Part shown: piece by piece, positions 15,001 to 23,886 of the stretch
Position numbering within the stretch: position 1 is the first letter of the stretch
How the letters are laid out: each line of letters begins with the position of its first letter
Source of the DNA: a virus
Length of the DNA: 60,277 bases
Strand: one strand, 5' to 3'
IMG/VR virus record: IMGVR_UViG_3300045954_000073
Coordinates: 1-60,277 of that record
Program-made: the position numbers and the translations under genes
Notes under the pieces: model-generated
Database searches by the model: none
What the model was told of the DNA's origin: nothing
Seen by the model: the letters and a program-made list of their open reading frames with translations, nothing else

Positions 15001-15333
15001 ATGGAGCAAATCTTAATTACTCCAGAGGCGCTCAAGCAAGCAATCCGCGAGGTGCTGGCTGAGTTCATGCCGAATTCGGCATTAGCAACTCATAACGCAA
15101 GACAGGAATGGTTCGACACTGACCCTGCTTATTCCATGATTGGAGTCCGGTCAGCCCGGCGACTTAGAGCCAAAGTGCTGAATGGCACTTTGCGCCAAGG
15201 CATTGACTGGCGCGATGACCGGGAGCCAGGGGCGGAAAGGCCCTCATATAGGTTTCACGTAGAAAATTGCAAGAAGCGTCTTGCAGTCCCACCCGAAAAA
15301 CGTAAATTATCTCGCAAAGCGCAAGCGCAATAG
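15001..15333 (+). CDS. Excisionase-like DNA-binding protein
   Basis: 110 residues from the ATG at 15001, which follows tandem GGAGGGTCA ribosome-site copies; an upstream GTG is less likely. The segment TDPAYSMIGVRSARRLRAKV with GIDWRDDREPG looks like the winged-helix core seen in excisionase- or MerR-like small proteins. A basic tail follows (PEKRKLSRKAQAQ). The ParB-like gene starts 1 nt after its stop. Confidence 0.45.
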   Translation: MEQILITPEALKQAIREVLAEFMPNSALATHNARQEWFDTDPAYSMIGVRSARRLRAKVLNGTLRQGIDWRDDREPGAERPSYRFHVENCKKRLAVPPEKRKLSRKAQAQ

Positions 15334-15334
15334 T

Positions 15335-16795
15335 ATGAAGACAGATTTTATAAACTGGAAAATTGAAGACATCAAAATTCCTGATGGCATGGTGTCCAAC
15401 AAGGTTTTGGTGCAACAGAATGTTGAAGCATTCAACGAAGATGGTGCAGTTGAGGAAATATCTGTAGATGCAGATGGCTATCTTATAAAGGGAATAAATG
15501 GGGTTGAAGCACTCAAGGAGCTTGGACAATCCGAAGTTTACGCCCTCACCACATTGCCCGACACCCCTGCAATACCAGAGTTGCAGTATATCCCCATTGA
15601 AAATCTGCAACTTCATCCTATAAACAGCAGTATTTATGGAAGAGGCGAGAATCTTGAGAAACTAGAAATAAGCCTTAGGGAAGTAGGATGCCTTAATCCG
15701 CTAACCGTGGTGCCGGCAGAAGCTTCTCACTTCAAAGACAAGCTTCTCAAAGTAGAAGGATTTGTGCCAGTAGACGGGAATTCTAGACTTGCTGCAGGTG
15801 GCAATGTTGGATTAAAAGGTTTCCTAGCTCGTGTAGTGACTTTTAATTCGAGTGCAGAGGAGCTGGAGGCTTTGCTATCAGCAAACGTATATCGACAGAA
15901 GTCCATCATCCAAATAGTACGAGAGTTAGAGTACTGGGAAGAAATCGAGCAGGCAAAAGCCGAGGAACGCCGGGGGAAGGCGGGAAAGGGGCTGGGTTCA
16001 GTTCGGGATATCGTAGCCCGGCGAGCCAATTGGGCAGGTTCCACATACGCCCATGCTAAAAAGGCAGTTGCCTATATGGACAAATTTGCGAACGCCCCCC
16101 AAGGATCGCATGAATACAAACTTTATTGGAACCTTAGAAAGAAGTTAGAACAGCCTAGAGGCGTCGAAGGTGCTTATAAGCTAATCGAGCCTTTTGTCAA
16201 AGAGGAGTTTCCACAGGAAACTAAAATTAAAATCTACGACTCCGTAAAAATCATCAACGGGGAATATGAAGGCAAGCAAGGCGTAGTTCGGGTTTGCCTT
16301 GACGATGGCTCGTTTCTCGTTAACCTTGATGGTACAGACCCCAAGTCCCAGCCAAAATTCAAGGCAACCGAATTGGAGCTAATTCCAATTGAGAAAATAG
16401 AACCTTCCACATCACAGACCAAACAGTCAGAACCGCCCACCTCTGTAGAGCAAGAACTATCTAAAAAACAAGAGGAACTTGGATTAGGGAAGAGCAAAGA
16501 ACAAGTCCTGCCATCAAAGAAAAAACCTGGTATTCAACCAGAAGAAGAGATCCAGTCGCAAGTCTTGCAAGCTAATGGCAGCAAGTTCAAGGATGGACAA
16601 ACTGAGGCAGCTTTTAGGGCAGTTCTTCAGCTGAACCCCAGACAAATATTTGAACTATTTTCAGCTCTCAATCAAGATATGTCTGTCGAACAACTAGAAG
16701 CTTTATGGCGGGCATTTAAATCCAATTTAGAGCATAAGGTAGATGATCGCAGCCTTGAAGCTTGGTCAAACATTATTTTGCAAAAGGCGGCTTAA
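15335..16795 (+). CDS. ParB/Spo0J-like nuclease-fold protein with KOW-like domain
   Basis: About 486 residues from the ATG at 15335. The ParB N-terminal domain is clear at about 85-180: IPIENLQLHPINSSIYGRGE, NPLTVVP and the VDGNSRLAAGGNVG box that matches the family's ERRxxA region. A helical segment follows (EEIEQAKAEERRGKAGKG, VARRANWAG...), then a KOW/SH3-like module (VKIINGEYEGKQGVVRVCL) and a charged tail. No ParA partner is seen. The family includes partition proteins and regulators; here it may serve segregation, replication or gene control. Confidence 0.75.
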   Translation: MKTDFINWKIEDIKIPDGMVSNKVLVQQNVEAFNEDGAVEEISVDADGYLIKGINGVEALKELGQSEVYALTTLPDTPAIPELQYIPIENLQLHPINSSIYGRGENLEKLEISLREVGCLNPLTVVPAEASHFKDKLLKVEGFVPVDGNSRLAAGGNVGLKGFLARVVTFNSSAEELEALLSANVYRQKSIIQIVRELEYWEEIEQAKAEERRGKAGKGLGSVRDIVARRANWAGSTYAHAKKAVAYMDKFANAPQGSHEYKLYWNLRKKLEQPRGVEGAYKLIEPFVKEEFPQETKIKIYDSVKIINGEYEGKQGVVRVCLDDGSFLVNLDGTDPKSQPKFKATELELIPIEKIEPSTSQTKQSEPPTSVEQELSKKQEELGLGKSKEQVLPSKKKPGIQPEEEIQSQVLQANGSKFKDGQTEAAFRAVLQLNPRQIFELFSALNQDMSVEQLEALWRAFKSNLEHKVDDRSLEAWSNIILQKAA

Positions 16796-17047: not shown

Positions 17048-17284
17048 ATGTCAACACTACTTGTAGTAGGTGCAATTGTTCAGCACATAAATTCAGATTG
17101 TCCCCATATCGGCGGCATAAACGGTCAAATAACCTGGATGGATACTAGCGGGACTTTCTGCGATGTGGTCTTTGATTTACCCCCAATCGAGGTCATCAAA
17201 CACCCTCACCTCAACGAACGTTATTACAACCGAATCAACGACCCGGTACGGCTACCCACAAGACTCTTAAAGCAAGTGGAATAA
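17048..17284 (+). CDS. Hypothetical protein, SH3-like
   Basis: 78 residues, beta-rich (VVGAIVQHINSDCPHIGG, GQITWMDTSGTFCDVVF), suggesting a small SH3/KOW-like barrel. Its stop overlaps the start of the methyltransferase at 17284 (TAATG), so the two are translated together. Confidence 0.45.
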   Translation: MSTLLVVGAIVQHINSDCPHIGGINGQITWMDTSGTFCDVVFDLPPIEVIKHPHLNERYYNRINDPVRLPTRLLKQVE

Positions 17285-18384: not shown

Positions 18385-19212
18385 ATGAAAACTCCTCCAT
18401 TGCTTCGGTATCATGGTGGCAAATATCGTGATGCTCACCGGATTATCTCGCAATTCCCATCACATGAATTTTATGTTGAAGTATTTGGTGGTGGCGCTTC
18501 GGTGCTGTTGCAAAAACAGCCTTCTTCATTTGAGGTCTACAACGATCTCAGTGGAGATGTGGTGAACTTTTTTAAAGTGCTGCGTGATCAGGCAGATGAG
18601 CTAATTAAAACTATCCAGTTAACTCCATATTCAAGGCTGGAAAGAAAATTAGCTTATGAGCCAGCAGCAGATAGCTTGGAGCGTGCCCGCAGATTGTACA
18701 TCCGCAGCTGGCAGGGCTTTGGTTCTAGTTCGCTAAAAATGAATACTGGATGGCGTTTTATGTATCGCCAATTAAGCGGCGAGAACGTTGTCGCCTCCTT
18801 CAACCGCACCGATCACTTGTATATTCTGGCAGCGCGACTCAAGCAGGTGCAGATTGAAAATGATGACGCTATCTCCATCATTAAACGTTATGGCAGAAAT
18901 GAAAAGACGCTGTTTTATTTAGATCCGCCATACCCCCACAGCACTCGTACAAGTTCAAATAGCTACGACCACGAAATGACAGATGAGCAGCACAGAGAAC
19001 TAGCACAAGTTTTGCATTCATTTAACGGGATGTACTTGATCAGTGGTTATGATTGTGAGCTTTACCGAGAACTTTACAAAGGATGGCGGTTAGTCGATTG
19101 GTCAAGCTTGATTAATGGGGTGAAGCGCAAATCCAAAGAGTGCCTTTGGATATCTCCTACTTGTGATTCCCACCAATTGCCGTTGTTTGCGATTAATGGG
19201 CGTGTGCAATGA
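18385..19212 (+). CDS. dam: DNA adenine methylase, Dam/D12 class
   Basis: 275 residues with the class hallmarks: LLRYHGGKYRDAH (about 5-17), AdoMet motif EVFGGGASVLL (about 33-43), VYNDLSGDVVNFF, and catalytic FYLDPPYPHS (about 178). D12-class enzymes of this kind usually methylate the adenine of GATC, the centre of the HIP1 octamer GCGATCGC that is common here. Its end overlaps the replication initiator gene by 4 nt (ATGA). Confidence 0.88.
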   Translation: MKTPPLLRYHGGKYRDAHRIISQFPSHEFYVEVFGGGASVLLQKQPSSFEVYNDLSGDVVNFFKVLRDQADELIKTIQLTPYSRLERKLAYEPAADSLERARRLYIRSWQGFGSSSLKMNTGWRFMYRQLSGENVVASFNRTDHLYILAARLKQVQIENDDAISIIKRYGRNEKTLFYLDPPYPHSTRTSSNSYDHEMTDEQHRELAQVLHSFNGMYLISGYDCELYRELYKGWRLVDWSSLINGVKRKSKECLWISPTCDSHQLPLFAINGRVQ

Positions 19213-20282
19213 GAGAATCTTGTATTTCTCATACTGCCCGCCAGCCAATAGCTATAGTTCGGCAGGATTACTATTTTTTGACTGGTAGAGATGCTGTAGC
19301 GGCTGCAATACTCAATATTTTTGAATATTGGGCTAATGCAGAAATTGCTAAAAACCCAAGTGAAGTTAATCCTTGGGTTGGAATTCACACTATCCAAGAG
19401 TTTGAAGAGCTTTTAGTAGGAATTGCTACTGACAAACAAATTAGGAAGCGCCTGCATACATTGCAGGAAGCAGGGTTTATTCAAGTGCGTCAACCCCTTA
19501 AACACAGGAAAAGTCTTGAGTTTAGGTTCATGGTTACAGTGGTGCAAGAATCGCTTGACCGTAGACCCAACGGTCAAACAACCGCTGACCCAACGGTCAA
19601 ACAACCGCTGACCCAACGGTCAAATGACCGTAGACCCAACGGTCAAACAACCGCTGACCCAACGGTCAAACAACCGCTGACCCAACGGTCAAATGACCGT
19701 TTCACTATATATAAAGAAGATCAATCAGAAATCAAGAGAGAAGTAAGAGAGAAGGAATTTTCTTATCCCGAACCTGAATTTGGTGCAACAGCAGCGCAGG
19801 AAGCAGTACCTCAATCTTCCACTTTGCTACCGACAGAACCAGAATTACAACCAACCAGTAATCTTGTATCCACCGCGTCGCTTAAAACCGCTAATACGAC
19901 AGCTGATCGCGTCCGGCGAACCTGGCAAGAAACCGGACTATTGCCCAAAATTCCGATGGAATTAGAGGCATGGGCCCAAGAAGATTTGGGTACTGAAATT
20001 ATTGCCTTTTACCGCAATAGCGGAAGAATCACCACGACGAAGCAAGGGGATATCAAGCCTGGGTTCGCTTTATACGTTGCTGCCCAGCATGAGAGTCGAA
20101 CCAAAGATATTGACTATGGATACTCATACATTCGTAGTCTAGAGGCAGTTCCCCATAAATGGGAAACGCTGGCGTCCCTCGTAATCAAATGGCAGTCCAG
20201 TGTTAGTACTGGCGATCAGAACATCAACATTACCAAAGAAGTCAACAGAACCTTGAAACCACCAATGCAAGTAAGTATTTAA
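19209..20282 (+). CDS. Replication initiator, lambda O-like, with iterons inside the gene
   Basis: 357 residues. The N-terminal winged-helix domain (about 10-112: YYFLTGRDAVAAAILNIFEY, ATDKQIRKRLHTLQEAGFI) is of the kind found in phage replication initiators. A low-complexity linker (about 119-164) is encoded by six 23-bp direct repeats. The C-terminal region (about 230-350: TADRVRRTWQETGLLP, FYRNSGRITTTKQGDI) is followed directly by a putative helicase-loader gene. The order initiator, internal iterons, A+T-rich stretch, loader is that of lambda O/ori/P. The assignment rests on architecture, not close sequence identity. Confidence 0.65.
   Translation: MRESCISHTARQPIAIVRQDYYFLTGRDAVAAAILNIFEYWANAEIAKNPSEVNPWVGIHTIQEFEELLVGIATDKQIRKRLHTLQEAGFIQVRQPLKHRKSLEFRFMVTVVQESLDRRPNGQTTADPTVKQPLTQRSNDRRPNGQTTADPTVKQPLTQRSNDRFTIYKEDQSEIKREVREKEFSYPEPEFGATAAQEAVPQSSTLLPTEPELQPTSNLVSTASLKTANTTADRVRRTWQETGLLPKIPMELEAWAQEDLGTEIIAFYRNSGRITTTKQGDIKPGFALYVAAQHESRTKDIDYGYSYIRSLEAVPHKWETLASLVIKWQSSVSTGDQNINITKEVNRTLKPPMQVSI
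19564..19701. repeat. Six 23-bp direct repeats (candidate origin iterons)
   Basis: Six head-to-tail copies of GACCCAACGGTCAAACAACC+GCT, starting at 19564, 19587, 19610, 19633, 19656 and 19679. Every third copy has TGACCGT in place of the AACCGCT end, giving two nearly identical 69-bp blocks. Those third copies contain a perfect inverted repeat ACGGTCA-AA-TGACCGT. The unit is not a multiple of three, so the same DNA is read in all three frames. An A+T-rich tract (TTTCACTATATATAAAG) follows at once. Confidence 0.85.
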
Positions 20283-20291
20283 GAGGCACAA

Positions 20292-20825
20292 ATGCTTGAC
20301 TATCAAGACTTTAAGAATGCTGTATCGGAGCTAGAAAGATTTTATAAAGGTGAAATTTTAAACGGCGGAATTTTGGAATCCGCTTGGTATGAAACCTTGA
20401 AGCGATTATCGCTTTCACAACTGCAAACGGGAATAGCCAGATGCTTTTTAAAGCATCCCCGTAAATATAATTTTTTTCCCTCATCTGGGCAAATTTTGGA
20501 GTTTGCAGTTGGTGAATACCGTCCCCCCGGTGAATGTTTAAAAAGAGATTTTTCACTAGCTTGCTTGCCCTCTGAGGAACAAAGGATGTCTTCTGAAGAG
20601 AAAGCTGAAGCGATCAAGCGCGGAAGGCTCACAGCAACCATCATTGTAAACAGCAGTGGCTTTATGTCTGTAGAGCAAAAAGACAAACTAATCGAAAACC
20701 TGCGACAGAAACCAACCTATGAACTTGAAATGATTGCTTCCACGGCTAAACAGGCTCAAAAGCAGAAAATAGGCAAACGGAAGGCTTTTAGCAATATTTC
20801 GACAGAACTAGAAAAAGTGATGTAA
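20292..20825 (+). CDS. Putative replicative helicase loader (lambda P-like position)
   Basis: 177 residues, starting 9 nt after the initiator stop. The N-terminal half (FKNAVSELERFYKGEI, SLSQLQTGIARCFLKHPRK, FFPSSGQILEFAVGEY) has the helical layout of phage helicase-loader/G39P-like proteins, which link the origin-bound initiator to DnaB. The basic C-terminus (KQAQKQKIGKRKAF) fits DNA or helicase contact. No P-loop is present, so this would be a non-ATPase loader. Confidence 0.5.
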   Translation: MLDYQDFKNAVSELERFYKGEILNGGILESAWYETLKRLSLSQLQTGIARCFLKHPRKYNFFPSSGQILEFAVGEYRPPGECLKRDFSLACLPSEEQRMSSEEKAEAIKRGRLTATIIVNSSGFMSVEQKDKLIENLRQKPTYELEMIASTAKQAQKQKIGKRKAFSNISTELEKVM

Positions 20826-20841
20826 AGATGGAGGTACTAAA

Positions 20842-23800
20842 ATGTATGATTTTCAAGTAGGCGATCGCTTTGCAATTCCGCAATCAAAACAGGTTTGTGA
20901 AATTTTAGAAATTAAGACCAGTCGCAAGTCCACACCTTATCGTGTGCGATGGGGTAAATCTAAAATTGAAAGATGGCTCGGATTATCAACGCTCCAGAAG
21001 CTCAAATACTTGCCTTCTGACGAAATCATCAGCAAGCCAAATAGTAAATCCAACTCATTAAATTTGGGTAAAGTCTTTAATGGTGCTGCACGCCTTGCTA
21101 CAGACGAAGATATCAAAATTCTTTCCCCCGGTGACTGGATAAAAGCTAAGGAAGAAAACTACTGCTACTGTTTTAAGCGTTGGGATGGCAAAACTCCGGT
21201 TGGTGAGTGGAAGGGTAAAGAGTTTCCGTTCCACCGTAATCTATTGATGGTTTGCACATCTATTGATGGTGTGTTGATAGAAAAGTTTTGCAATGATAAT
21301 ACCCTTGCTGCTCCTACAAAAATTATAAAAGCAATTACCCTGCACCAACCTTGGGCGCAGCTAGTTGGCATTCACAAGCACTATGAGACTAGGAGTTGGA
21401 GTACTGACTACAGAGGTAAACTTGCTATCCATGCTGCACAAAAGCCGAAGCGATGGAACGACCACAAAAAAATTATTAGTGAATTCAGTGATCTGTTAGC
21501 AACGAGGGACTGCGAATACTCTGCAATAGTTGCAATCGCCAATTTAACAGACTGTATCAAAATGACTGAAGAATTTATCAGTCAGCAATCAGAAACAGAA
21601 ATAAGATGCGGACTGTGGGAGATTGGGCGCTATGCCTGGAAGTTGGAGAATGTAAAGATACTTTCTGAGCCAATACCTGCTAAAGGCTTTCATAAGCTCT
21701 GGGACATTGAATTATCTATTTTCGTTGTCGAAGAAAGTGAAACTTTTGTTAACAAAGATGCTCAATCTTCTGGACTAAACTCCGAAGGATGTGTAGAGCA
21801 AGTTTTACAATATTGCGTCCCCGGTGACGTAATTGGTCTTGGTGGGTGGTGTATTCTGGGCCAGCAGCCAAGTTACTTAACTACATTCTGGGAAACCATT
21901 AATAATGAATCCCAATCTCAGGAATCTGCACTAACTTTTCAACCAAACCTAACCGTCGCCATCTGTGAATTTTTGGGCAAGTGTGATCGACCTGCTCAAT
22001 CAATAAGGGATATAGCCAAAGCAGTCGGTTGCGATGTTGATAATGTCCACGATGCTCTTGAGGTGGGAAGGCAACAGGGGTTATTTAAACCTGCTTTTAC
22101 AATTGAGCCTGATTTTTGGTTCTTAAACCGCCAAGAATCTGCTGAAGCTGAAACCGACAAATTGACCATAGACAAACTTTCAGTAGGTGATCGCGTTTGC
22201 TACGATATCAACTCCTCTACCCGTAGAGGTTTAGTGATTACAGCAGGAGAAAGAGTCGGTGTTAAGTGGGATAACTGGGTAACTCTTGCCTATTCTGCTG
22301 ACGACATAGCCAATATGGTTCAATATATGAACTTTCGCTGTGAAGATATTGATCCAGAATCTGAAGAATTTTTACAAGATTTGGATGCTGATCAGTATCG
22401 ATGGAACGAAAAAGATTTTGGTGACGTTCCTCGCAAGGCAGACGGCGACCAATTAACCATTTTTTTTGATGACGCAGAAGAACCGCCGCTACCTGAAGAT
22501 TTTCCAGATATCCAATCTTTTGATAAAGCCTGGGACGTGTGGGACAAGCAAAACCAAGCTTATTTGACATCGGTTGAAAAGGAGTGGCGAGTTTCAGGAA
22601 TCGTCAATAAGCAACAACGACGAGACGGAACAGTTGTTAGTGTTGGACGATCAGGATTTTCAATTGAGTGGGATGGGTGGATCAAAATTCCTTACTCATT
22701 TTCACAGATTCAGGAATTGAAGCTATTAAAAATTCAGAAAACCGAGGAAAAAGAAGAATGCTTACAACAGGACACCTATTCTGTGGCGGTGGCGGCGACA
22801 CAGAAGGAGCAATTAAAGCTGGATATTGCCCTCTCTGGGGAATTGATAACAACTCCCAAGCCTGCGCCGTCTTCCGAAAGCGATTCCCAAAAACCGACCT
22901 GTATGAATACGACGTTAGAGAACTCTCTGACGACTTCATTCTCGGTTTGCCCATCCCCGACTGCCTCATTTGGGGAAGCCCTTGTCCAGACTTTTCCACT
23001 GCTGGCAAACGAGCCGGCATTAATGGATCTCGTGGACAGTTGTTTTTTGAAGGAATCCGATTTCTTCGCCTCCAGCGTCCACCATCATTCCTGTTTGAAA
23101 ACGTTGAGGGAATCCTTAGCAGTGACCAAGCAACTGCCTTCCCCCTCATCATCGAAACGTTTGCAGAACTGGGGTATGTGGGGACTTGGCAAAAACTTAA
23201 TGCCAACCGACACGTCCCTCAAAACCGAGAACGAATTTATTGTGTGGGCTATCACATCGGATGTAAGAGCAACGCAGCCTAAGCTTTACAAAAAATCTTT
23301 GCACGAGGTTCTCAACGGTTCACCCGTAAACTCGTTTACGGGTGAGGATATTGACGAAGCTCCTACAATTTGCGGCGCAGGGTGGCAGCATCGATCGCCT
23401 CAAAATAGAGATAAATCAGGTGCTTCCTTTGCAATCATTTTTCGCGCAGCTGATGGCGATCACGTCTACTCTGCCGATTTATGTAAAGATGCCCCAACTT
23501 TAAGAAGCTTGGCAAATACGGGTAAACACCAATCAGGATCTGGTGCTTACAAAGTCCGCCAGATGGGTAGCGATGCAACCATAGAGCGCCCAATCACCCC
23601 CACTGAGGCAGAGATGCTGATGGGATGGGAAGTCGGCAGTACAGCAATTGGTATTGATGCCGAGGGGCATGAAATATCAATTAGTGATACTCAACGCATA
23701 AAAATGCTGGGCAACGGCATTGTCCCAGCGGAAATAACAAATATTTTGGAGCGTCTAAAGCCGATTCTTAAGCGCAAATTAGAATCGGAAATTTCGCCAA

Positions 23801-23886
23801 ATTTGAAGGCCGCCTACTGGCAATTACGTCGCAGCGGAAAAACTCACCAAGAAGCCAAGAAAATATTAGTAGGAGTAACACAATGA
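20842..23886 (+). CDS. ASCH-domain multi-module protein; frame runs on into a methyltransferase 3' end
   Basis: A 1014-codon open frame with two unrelated parts. Codons 1 to about 640 are a coherent protein: an SH3-like module (VGDRFAIPQSKQVCEIL), an ASCH domain at about 163-292 (KAITLHQPWAQLVGIHKHYE, GFHKLWDIE), a helical domain and two more SH3-like modules (VGDRVCYDINSSTRRG, GTVVSVGRSGFSIEWDG). ASCH domains bind RNA or modified bases. From 22758 a C5-methyltransferase is read in another frame, while this frame stays open in Ser/Thr-rich sequence that looks like a shadow. From about 23290 this frame carries that enzyme's C-terminal motifs (PTEAEMLMGWE, MLGNGIVPAEI). The native end of the ASCH protein is therefore unclear. 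Confidence 0.6.
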   Translation: MYDFQVGDRFAIPQSKQVCEILEIKTSRKSTPYRVRWGKSKIERWLGLSTLQKLKYLPSDEIISKPNSKSNSLNLGKVFNGAARLATDEDIKILSPGDWIKAKEENYCYCFKRWDGKTPVGEWKGKEFPFHRNLLMVCTSIDGVLIEKFCNDNTLAAPTKIIKAITLHQPWAQLVGIHKHYETRSWSTDYRGKLAIHAAQKPKRWNDHKKIISEFSDLLATRDCEYSAIVAIANLTDCIKMTEEFISQQSETEIRCGLWEIGRYAWKLENVKILSEPIPAKGFHKLWDIELSIFVVEESETFVNKDAQSSGLNSEGCVEQVLQYCVPGDVIGLGGWCILGQQPSYLTTFWETINNESQSQESALTFQPNLTVAICEFLGKCDRPAQSIRDIAKAVGCDVDNVHDALEVGRQQGLFKPAFTIEPDFWFLNRQESAEAETDKLTIDKLSVGDRVCYDINSSTRRGLVITAGERVGVKWDNWVTLAYSADDIANMVQYMNFRCEDIDPESEEFLQDLDADQYRWNEKDFGDVPRKADGDQLTIFFDDAEEPPLPEDFPDIQSFDKAWDVWDKQNQAYLTSVEKEWRVSGIVNKQQRRDGTVVSVGRSGFSIEWDGWIKIPYSFSQIQELKLLKIQKTEEKEECLQQDTYSVAVAATQKEQLKLDIALSGELITTPKPAPSSESDSQKPTCMNTTLENSLTTSFSVCPSPTASFGEALVQTFPLLANEPALMDLVDSCFLKESDFFASSVHHHSCLKTLRESLAVTKQLPSPSSSKRLQNWGMWGLGKNLMPTDTSLKTENEFIVWAITSDVRATQPKLYKKSLHEVLNGSPVNSFTGEDIDEAPTICGAGWQHRSPQNRDKSGASFAIIFRAADGDHVYSADLCKDAPTLRSLANTGKHQSGSGAYKVRQMGSDATIERPITPTEAEMLMGWEVGSTAIGIDAEGHEISISDTQRIKMLGNGIVPAEITNILERLKPILKRKLESEISPNLKAAYWQLRRSGKTHQEAKKILVGVTQ
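22758..23282 (+). CDS. DNA cytosine-5 methyltransferase, N-terminal part (gene split by +1 shift)
   Basis: From the ATG at 22758 (purine-rich ribosome site upstream): motif I LFCGGGGDTEGAIKAGY, motif II-like WGIDNN, catalytic motif IV GSPCPDFSTAGKR, motif VI FLFENVEG, motif VIII PQNRERIYCVGY. The frame stops at 23280-23282. Motifs IX and X lie downstream in the +1 frame, up to 23886. A full enzyme would need a +1 shift between about 23230 and 23282, or it has been lost by an indel or stop mutation. It carries the catalytic Cys but no target-recognition domain, so it is probably inactive as it stands. Confidence 0.8.
   Translation: MLTTGHLFCGGGGDTEGAIKAGYCPLWGIDNNSQACAVFRKRFPKTDLYEYDVRELSDDFILGLPIPDCLIWGSPCPDFSTAGKRAGINGSRGQLFFEGIRFLRLQRPPSFLFENVEGILSSDQATAFPLIIETFAELGYVGTWQKLNANRHVPQNRERIYCVGYHIGCKSNAA
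23321..23344. repeat. Perfect 11-bp hairpin at the methyltransferase break
   Basis: CACCCGTAAAC and GTTTACGGGTG pair perfectly across 2 nt, 39 nt after the premature stop of the methyltransferase's first frame. It could be the footprint of a small insertion or simply a local palindrome. Confidence 0.55.

What the first reader, a model, noticed from the sequence alone, without database searches (positions are those of the whole stretch)
19564..19701. Replication origin candidate: six 23-bp iterons inside an initiator gene
The 23-bp unit is not a multiple of three, so identical DNA is translated in all three frames. Selection or duplication therefore acts on the DNA, not on the peptide. The array lies in the initiator gene, between its winged-helix domain and its C-terminal part, is followed at once by an A+T-rich tract and then by a helicase-loader-like gene. 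This is the arrangement of lambda O with ori-lambda inside it. The higher-order pattern (every third copy altered to make a perfect ACGGTCA-AA-TGACCGT inverted repeat) is distinctive.
Basis: partly seen in the sequence, partly recalled or inferred. Interest (0 to 1): 0.82.

Follow-up and report, generated by a model that had tools for sequence, protein, structure and literature searches.

The report
Phage replication origin inside initiator gene
A cyanobacterial phage seems to carry the starting point for copying its DNA inside the gene for the protein that recognises it, as phage lambda does, and related phages have swapped the recognition domain and its matching DNA repeats as one unit.

Summary
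Six 23-bp copies (19564-19701) lie in the 357-codon gene 19209-20282, with a dyad CGGTCAAAYRACCG in every copy. DNA-level constraint is shown: synonymous recoding of the peptide never reproduces the 23-bp periodicity (0 of 20,000), and 30 of 33 identical-residue codons match a 62%-identical homologue inside the array, against 82 of 184 outside.

The strongest new evidence is that the repeats follow the N-terminal winged-helix (WH) domain. All four genes with this WH type carry this dyad. Seven relatives sharing the C-terminal domain but with other WH domains lack it; five of those carry a different array at the same place. In contigs L008 and L061 the flanks are alike (99% identical upstream) and only the WH-plus-array segment differs.

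The next gene encodes a lambda-P-like loader (Z 8.8, rmsd 1.8 A to lambda P). An A+T-rich tract with a conserved ACTATATA element abuts the array.

Very probably a lambda-type intragenic origin, though the initiator is not detectably a lambda O homologue by sequence. The "every third copy" pattern is explained by coding: each unit type has a TGA stop in the other's frame. No binding or replication was shown. New member of a known kind, in cyanophages.

The parts
19209..20282 (+). initiator gene (357 codons): WH domain, array-encoded linker, helical C-terminal domain
   Evidence: ORF; domain layout from AlphaFold2 model, array-encoded region below pLDDT 50; C-domain siblings match PHROG replication-initiation families
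19209..19559 (+). winged-helix DNA-binding domain of the initiator (residues 1-117)
   Evidence: 50-72% identical to L008, L007 and L072; H-H-H-strand-strand layout; weak matches to MarR/ArsR winged helices, Z about 4-4.6
19564..19701 (+). six 23-bp iterons, each with dyad CGGTCAAAYRACCG; partial unit begins at 19556
   Evidence: same 6 x 23 bp array in L008, dyads in L072 and L007
19571..19584 (+). iteron dyad 1 CGGTCAAACAACCG
19594..19607 (+). iteron dyad 2 CGGTCAAACAACCG
19617..19630 (+). iteron dyad 3 CGGTCAAATGACCG (extended perfect dyad 19616-19631)
19640..19653 (+). iteron dyad 4
19663..19676 (+). iteron dyad 5
19686..19699 (+). iteron dyad 6 (extended perfect dyad 19684-19701)
19702..19765 (+). 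A+T-rich, A-skewed tract, candidate unwinding element
   Evidence: 60 bp after array 72% A+T, 99th percentile of the gene; 9 of 10 identical-residue codons conserved with L008 in the 18 codons after the array
19704..19714 (+). ACTATATATAA element at the same distance from the last dyad in window, L008 and L072 (ACTATATACAA)
19899..20210 (+). helical C-terminal domain shared with initiators that carry other WH domains and other arrays
20292..20825 (+). lambda-P/G39P-like helicase loader (177 aa)
   Evidence: N-terminal residues 4-74 match lambda P in the DnaB-P structure 9oa1, Z 8.8, rmsd 1.8, 66 aligned; BFVD rank-1 name G39P (E 0.046); adjacent to the initiator in L008, L060-L063 and L071

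Best explanation
The array is the replication origin of a temperate cyanobacterial phage, embedded in its own initiator gene. The initiator's N-terminal winged helix, probably as a dimer, binds the dyad in each of six 23-bp iterons. The bound nucleoprotein complex strains the adjacent A+T-rich tract (ACTATATATAA and the following A-rich stretch) so that it melts. The C-terminal helical domain then recruits the P-like product of the next gene, which delivers the host DnaB helicase. Shown here: repeats, dyads, DNA-level constraint, co-inheritance of WH and repeats, A+T tract, loader resemblance. Inferred: binding, dimerisation, melting, recruitment, origin activity.
For: DNA-level constraint: lag-23 identity is 0.86 against 0.48 (sd 0.04, maximum 0.66) in 20,000 synonymous recodings; six CGGT-N6-ACCG dyads against a mean of 0.09; identical-residue codons are the same in 30/33 inside the array against 82/184 outside (Fisher p 3e-7); using one 69-bp unit only, p is about 0.001. 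Co-variation: window, L008, L072 and L007 share the WH (50-72% identity) and all carry CGGTCAAAYRACCG at the same place, at 23-bp spacing in window, L008 and L007, with one 23-bp step among the spacings of L072. Seven genes with the same C-domain and other WH domains have no match within 2 mismatches. Five of them have other arrays there: 15 bp x8.7 in L061, 24 bp x5.5 in L063 (TACC-N6-GGTA), 21 bp x3.9 in L060 (TGTGC-N6-GCACA), 22 bp x5 in L010, 15 bp in L013. Natural swap: L008 and L061 are 99% identical for 300 bp that end 28 bp (L008) or 12 bp (L061) before the start codon, have no match across the WH plus array, then are alike again downstream; L010 and L013 have C-parts 86% identical with unrelated WH and different repeats. 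Replication context: PHROG replication-initiation or O-like hits for siblings (L061 1.7e-21, L063 7.7e-12, L071 3.2e-9); lambda P match for the next gene; the array-bearing gene in L055 is followed by a gene that reads as a DnaB-type helicase (my reading of the translation). A+T tract and ACTATATA element.
Against: No experiment. The window protein itself has no significant Pfam or PHROG match, and its predicted WH is low-confidence (pLDDT about 55). More distant WH relatives (24-33% identity: L009, L052, L053, L054, L058) show no iteron array in the gene in TRF, and L007 is cut by an assembly gap. L062, L071 and L011/L070 share the C-domain but have no clean iteron array by TRF, although L062 and L071 have dyads there. 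23 bp is not an integral number of helical turns. Cumulative GC skew has its minimum near 10 kb, not here, though gene orientation confounds it. Only one close full-length homologue was available, so the codon test rests on one pair.
Confidence: 0.86

Rival explanations
1. The array is an operator: the winged-helix protein binds it to regulate its own operon, with no role in replication start.
For: The WH is MarR/ArsR-like in its weak structural matches, and dyads suit a repressor dimer.
Against: The sites lie in mid-gene, some 350 bp downstream of the start. No promoter-like site was found at the array. The neighbour is a P-like helicase loader, siblings are replication initiators, and an A+T tract with a conserved element abuts the array. 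Autoregulation could coexist with origin function.
Confidence: 0.06
2. The array is a partition or segregation site (centromere) of a plasmid-like prophage, bound by the WH protein.
For: A ParB-like gene lies nearby (15281-16795, phrog_4715 E 2e-7). Array-bound WH adaptors exist in plasmid partition systems (general knowledge).
Against: Array and WH travel with an O-like initiator C-domain and a lambda-P-like loader, not with the ParB-like gene. I saw no ParA-type ATPase among the window ORFs I read or scanned.
Confidence: 0.04
3. The repeats are neutral: replication slippage in a disordered linker produced a tandem repeat that is maintained only because the linker tolerates it.
For: The encoded segment is predicted disordered, and the 69-bp unit is an exact in-frame duplication, so slippage and homogenisation clearly occur.
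Against: The dyad is kept at the same place in three relatives of the WH (28-50% different there) while flanking synonymous sites diverge. Period 23 forces the same DNA through three frames. Unrelated WH types have different but also dyad-bearing arrays at the same point.
Confidence: 0.03

Closest known systems
Phage lambda ori-lambda / O and P (also Stx phages, six iterons)
   Same: Iterons in the middle of the initiator gene, A+T-rich tract beside them, helicase-loader gene directly downstream. Extra iterons add codons (two iterons = 13 residues, so the unit there is also not a multiple of three; PMC7466680). The loader N-domain matches lambda P.
   Different: The window initiator has no detectable sequence relation to O. 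The iterons are 23 bp with CGGT-N6-ACCG dyads rather than about 20 bp. The host is a cyanobacterium.
Salmonella phages P22 and L, gene 18
   Same: [quoted passage not shown] The same one-gene, one-iteron-type logic is seen here.
   Different: Those initiators are only distantly alike overall. Here near-identical flanks and C-domains carry different WH plus array cassettes, so the swap boundaries can be read.
SPP1 G39P helicase loader / DnaD-type phage initiators
   Same: The downstream protein matches G39P-named viral models at rank 1 (E 0.046); siblings of the initiator match DnaD-like and replication-initiation PHROGs.
   Different: No significant sequence match of the window proteins to those families.
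Iteron plasmids (Rep/RepA type)
   Same: Tandem iterons bound by winged-helix initiators next to an A+T-rich region (general knowledge).
   Different: In those the iterons usually lie outside the rep gene; no Rep family match here.

Membership tests
Lambda-type intragenic phage origin (functional class) | tandem iterons inside the coding region of the initiator | tested here: met
   19564-19701 inside ORF 19209-20282
Lambda-type intragenic phage origin (functional class) | A+T-rich unwinding tract abutting the iterons | tested here: met
   72% A+T, 99th percentile of the gene; conserved ACTATATA element; melting itself not tested
Lambda-type intragenic phage origin (functional class) | helicase-loader gene directly downstream | tested here: met
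   lambda P match Z 8.8, rmsd 1.8, 66 residues; other rows aligned to that N-terminal region alone are below Z 4
Lambda-type intragenic phage origin (functional class) | iteron sequence pairs with the initiator's DNA-binding domain | tested here: met
   4 of 4 same-WH genes have the dyad, 0 of 7 others; inferred pairing, not measured binding
Lambda-type intragenic phage origin (functional class) | initiator binds iterons and the site starts replication | not testable with these tools
   needs EMSA or footprint and replication assay
Bacteriophage replication protein O (Pfam PF04492) | sequence match to the family model | tested here: not met
   no match for the window protein at E up to 1; only a weak match in sibling L060, E 0.0074, below cut-off
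PHROG replication-initiation / O-like families | sequence match to the family | tested here: inconclusive
   window protein none; siblings with other WH domains match strongly, through the WH rather than the shared C-domain
Lambda P / G39P helicase loaders | N-terminal fold shared with lambda P | tested here: met
   viral structure library names G39P, replisome organizer and replication protein P among top rows, E 0.046 and weaker
Lambda P / G39P helicase loaders | binds and loads DnaB | not testable with these tools
   no assay

The most novel reading that the evidence does not exclude
In this cyanophage and plasmid family the origin is a mobile cartridge: a WH domain, its own dyad iterons and the start of the unwinding tract are exchanged as one in-frame DNA segment between conserved flanks, so that origin specificity is reset in a single recombination step while the helicase-recruiting C-domain and the loader stay the same.
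Probability: 0.6. Interest if true: 0.6.

Novelty: new member of a known kind. Interest (0 to 1): 0.5.

Why it matters
My searches of the paper library found no description of an intragenic iteron origin in temperate cyanobacterial phages. The family gives a clean natural experiment on origin specificity: near-identical genes differ only in the DNA-binding domain and the repeats next to it. It offers several orthogonal initiator-iteron pairs on one C-domain and loader, which could make replicon tools for filamentous cyanobacteria and a test of how an origin and its reader change together when the DNA must also code for protein.

Tried and rejected
The array as a higher-order regulatory code (every third copy): rejected as unnecessary, since unit type A has TGA in phase 2 and type B has TGA in phase 0, and the 69-bp unit is an exact in-frame duplication.

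A collection scan with the 16-mer core in IMG/VR gave 30 stretches. Only the contig of L008 has more than one clustered copy; the rest look like chance. blastn with the array in plasmids and phages gave nothing. tblastn of the loader in plasmids gave nothing.

Sequence search of PDB with the loader and WH profiles gave only chance matches. PDB structural matches of the initiator model are weak and cover residues 73-123 only; the C-domain fold was effectively not tested there.

A seventh near-match CGGTCAAATAACCT at 17122-17135 lies in a small ORF and is not claimed as part of the origin. GC skew did not help.

Full report
What is there. The window is a 60-kb virus record with terminase and 32 copies of the cyanobacterial octamer GCGATCGC against 0.4 expected, so it is a phage of a cyanobacterium. 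The array consists of six 23-bp units from 19564 to 19701, best described as two exact copies of a 69-bp unit, and is the only tandem array scoring above 100 in the window. Each unit carries the dyad CGGTCAAAYRACCG; units 3 and 6 extend it to ACGGTCA-AA-TGACCGT.

Not a peptide effect. With the protein held fixed and codons redrawn from the phage's own usage, the 23-bp periodicity is never reached (observed 0.86; simulated mean 0.48, maximum 0.66, 20,000 draws). Six dyads are seen against a mean of 0.09. Against the homologue L008 (62% identical over the whole protein), codons for identical residues are unchanged in 30 of 33 cases in the array and 82 of 184 outside; 9 of 10 are unchanged in the 18 codons after it. 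Because copies are not independent I repeated the test on single 69-bp units: p about 0.001 and 0.0001.

The every-third-copy pattern. The three reading phases recur in the order 1, 0, 2. The common unit (ending CCGCT) reads TGA in phase 2 when followed by the next unit, and the altered unit (CAAATGACC) reads TGA in phase 0. The pattern is therefore what a 23-bp repeat must do to stay open in three frames. In L008, which has no such TGA, the third-frame copies also differ from the others.

Repeats follow the winged helix. Loci were found by three independent handles: the whole protein, the downstream loader and the C-terminal domain. Four genes share the window's WH (50-72% identity): window, L008, L072 and L007. 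All four have CGGTCAAAYRACCG between WH and C-part. L007 has an unrelated C-part by BLAST, and L072 a distant one (32%), so the dyad is not carried by the C-part. Conversely L061, L063, L062, L060, L010, L013 and L071 share the C-domain (27-68% to the window) but have other WH domains, and none has the dyad within 2 mismatches. Five of them have a different tandem array at the same point, mostly with dyads of their own. L062 and L071 have dyads but no clean array. L012, a near-copy of L010, was not counted separately.

A natural swap. L008 and L061 share 300 bp at 99% identity that end 28 bp (L008) or 12 bp (L061) before the start codon, then nothing, then a 79% identical stretch that begins 157 bp after the L008 array. 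L008 against L062 resumes 22 bp after the array. The exchanged segment is WH plus array plus, in part, the A+T tract.

Replication context. Siblings of the gene match PHROG replication-initiation and O-like families. L055, a gene with a 21-bp dyad array found by a weak WH match, is followed by what reads as a DnaB-type helicase. The window's next gene, 20292-20825, gave a model (mean pLDDT 76.5) whose residues 4-74 match lambda P in a DnaB-P structure (Z 8.8, rmsd 1.8, 66 aligned; other rows aligned to that N-terminal region alone are under 4). G39P, replisome organizer and replication protein P are among the names in the viral structure library, all at E 0.046 or weaker. The 60 bp after the array are 72% A+T, and ACTATATAYAA stands at the same distance from the last dyad in window, L008 and L072.

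Mechanism. Inference: WH dimers bind the six dyads; the complex opens the A+T tract; the C-domain brings in the P-like loader with host DnaB. Known comparison: in lambda the origin lies in the middle of O and consists of iterons and an A+T-rich region, and Stx phages have six iterons (PMC7466680). Lambda, P22 and L initiators each appear to bind different iterons in their own coding regions (PMC8022706). The system works like lambda O/P. By sequence the initiator does not meet the test for the O family.

Limits. One close full-length homologue, an assembly gap in L007, a low-confidence initiator model (mean pLDDT 52), no binding or replication data. The 4-of-4 against 0-of-7 contrast (Fisher p 0.003) ignores relatedness of the sequences.

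Noticed in passing
window 17122-17135: A near-copy of the iteron core, CGGTCAAATAACCT (1 mismatch), lies about 2.4 kb upstream inside a small ORF (about 17048-17284); possibly chance, possibly an accessory site.
   Followed up: partly
window 20842-23886: A 1014-aa gene appears to fuse a domain of phrog_3193 type with DNA cytosine methyltransferase-like parts; Nostoc plasmids have ASCH and cytosine methyltransferase genes in a similar order after the initiator and loader.
   Followed up: no
L010, L012, L013 (Nostoc plasmids): Besides the 22-bp or 15-bp array these initiators carry a second in-frame 36-bp repeat (SQVEKLDQPTPV-type peptide) and A-rich 14-15-bp tandem repeats in the tract after the array, reminiscent of unwinding-element repeats.
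   Followed up: no
L055 649-1881 (-): Another array-bearing WH gene (21 bp x2.8, TCACTATTAGTGA dyads) directly before a gene that reads as a DnaB-type helicase; suggests the layout is wider than this family.
   Followed up: partly
L007 1180-1189: An N gap in the Phormidesmis MAG sits just after two dyads, where a repeat array would be expected to break the assembly.
   Followed up: no
L062 5814-6119: An exact 153-bp tandem duplication in a Myb/HTH-like gene downstream of the loader.
   Followed up: no
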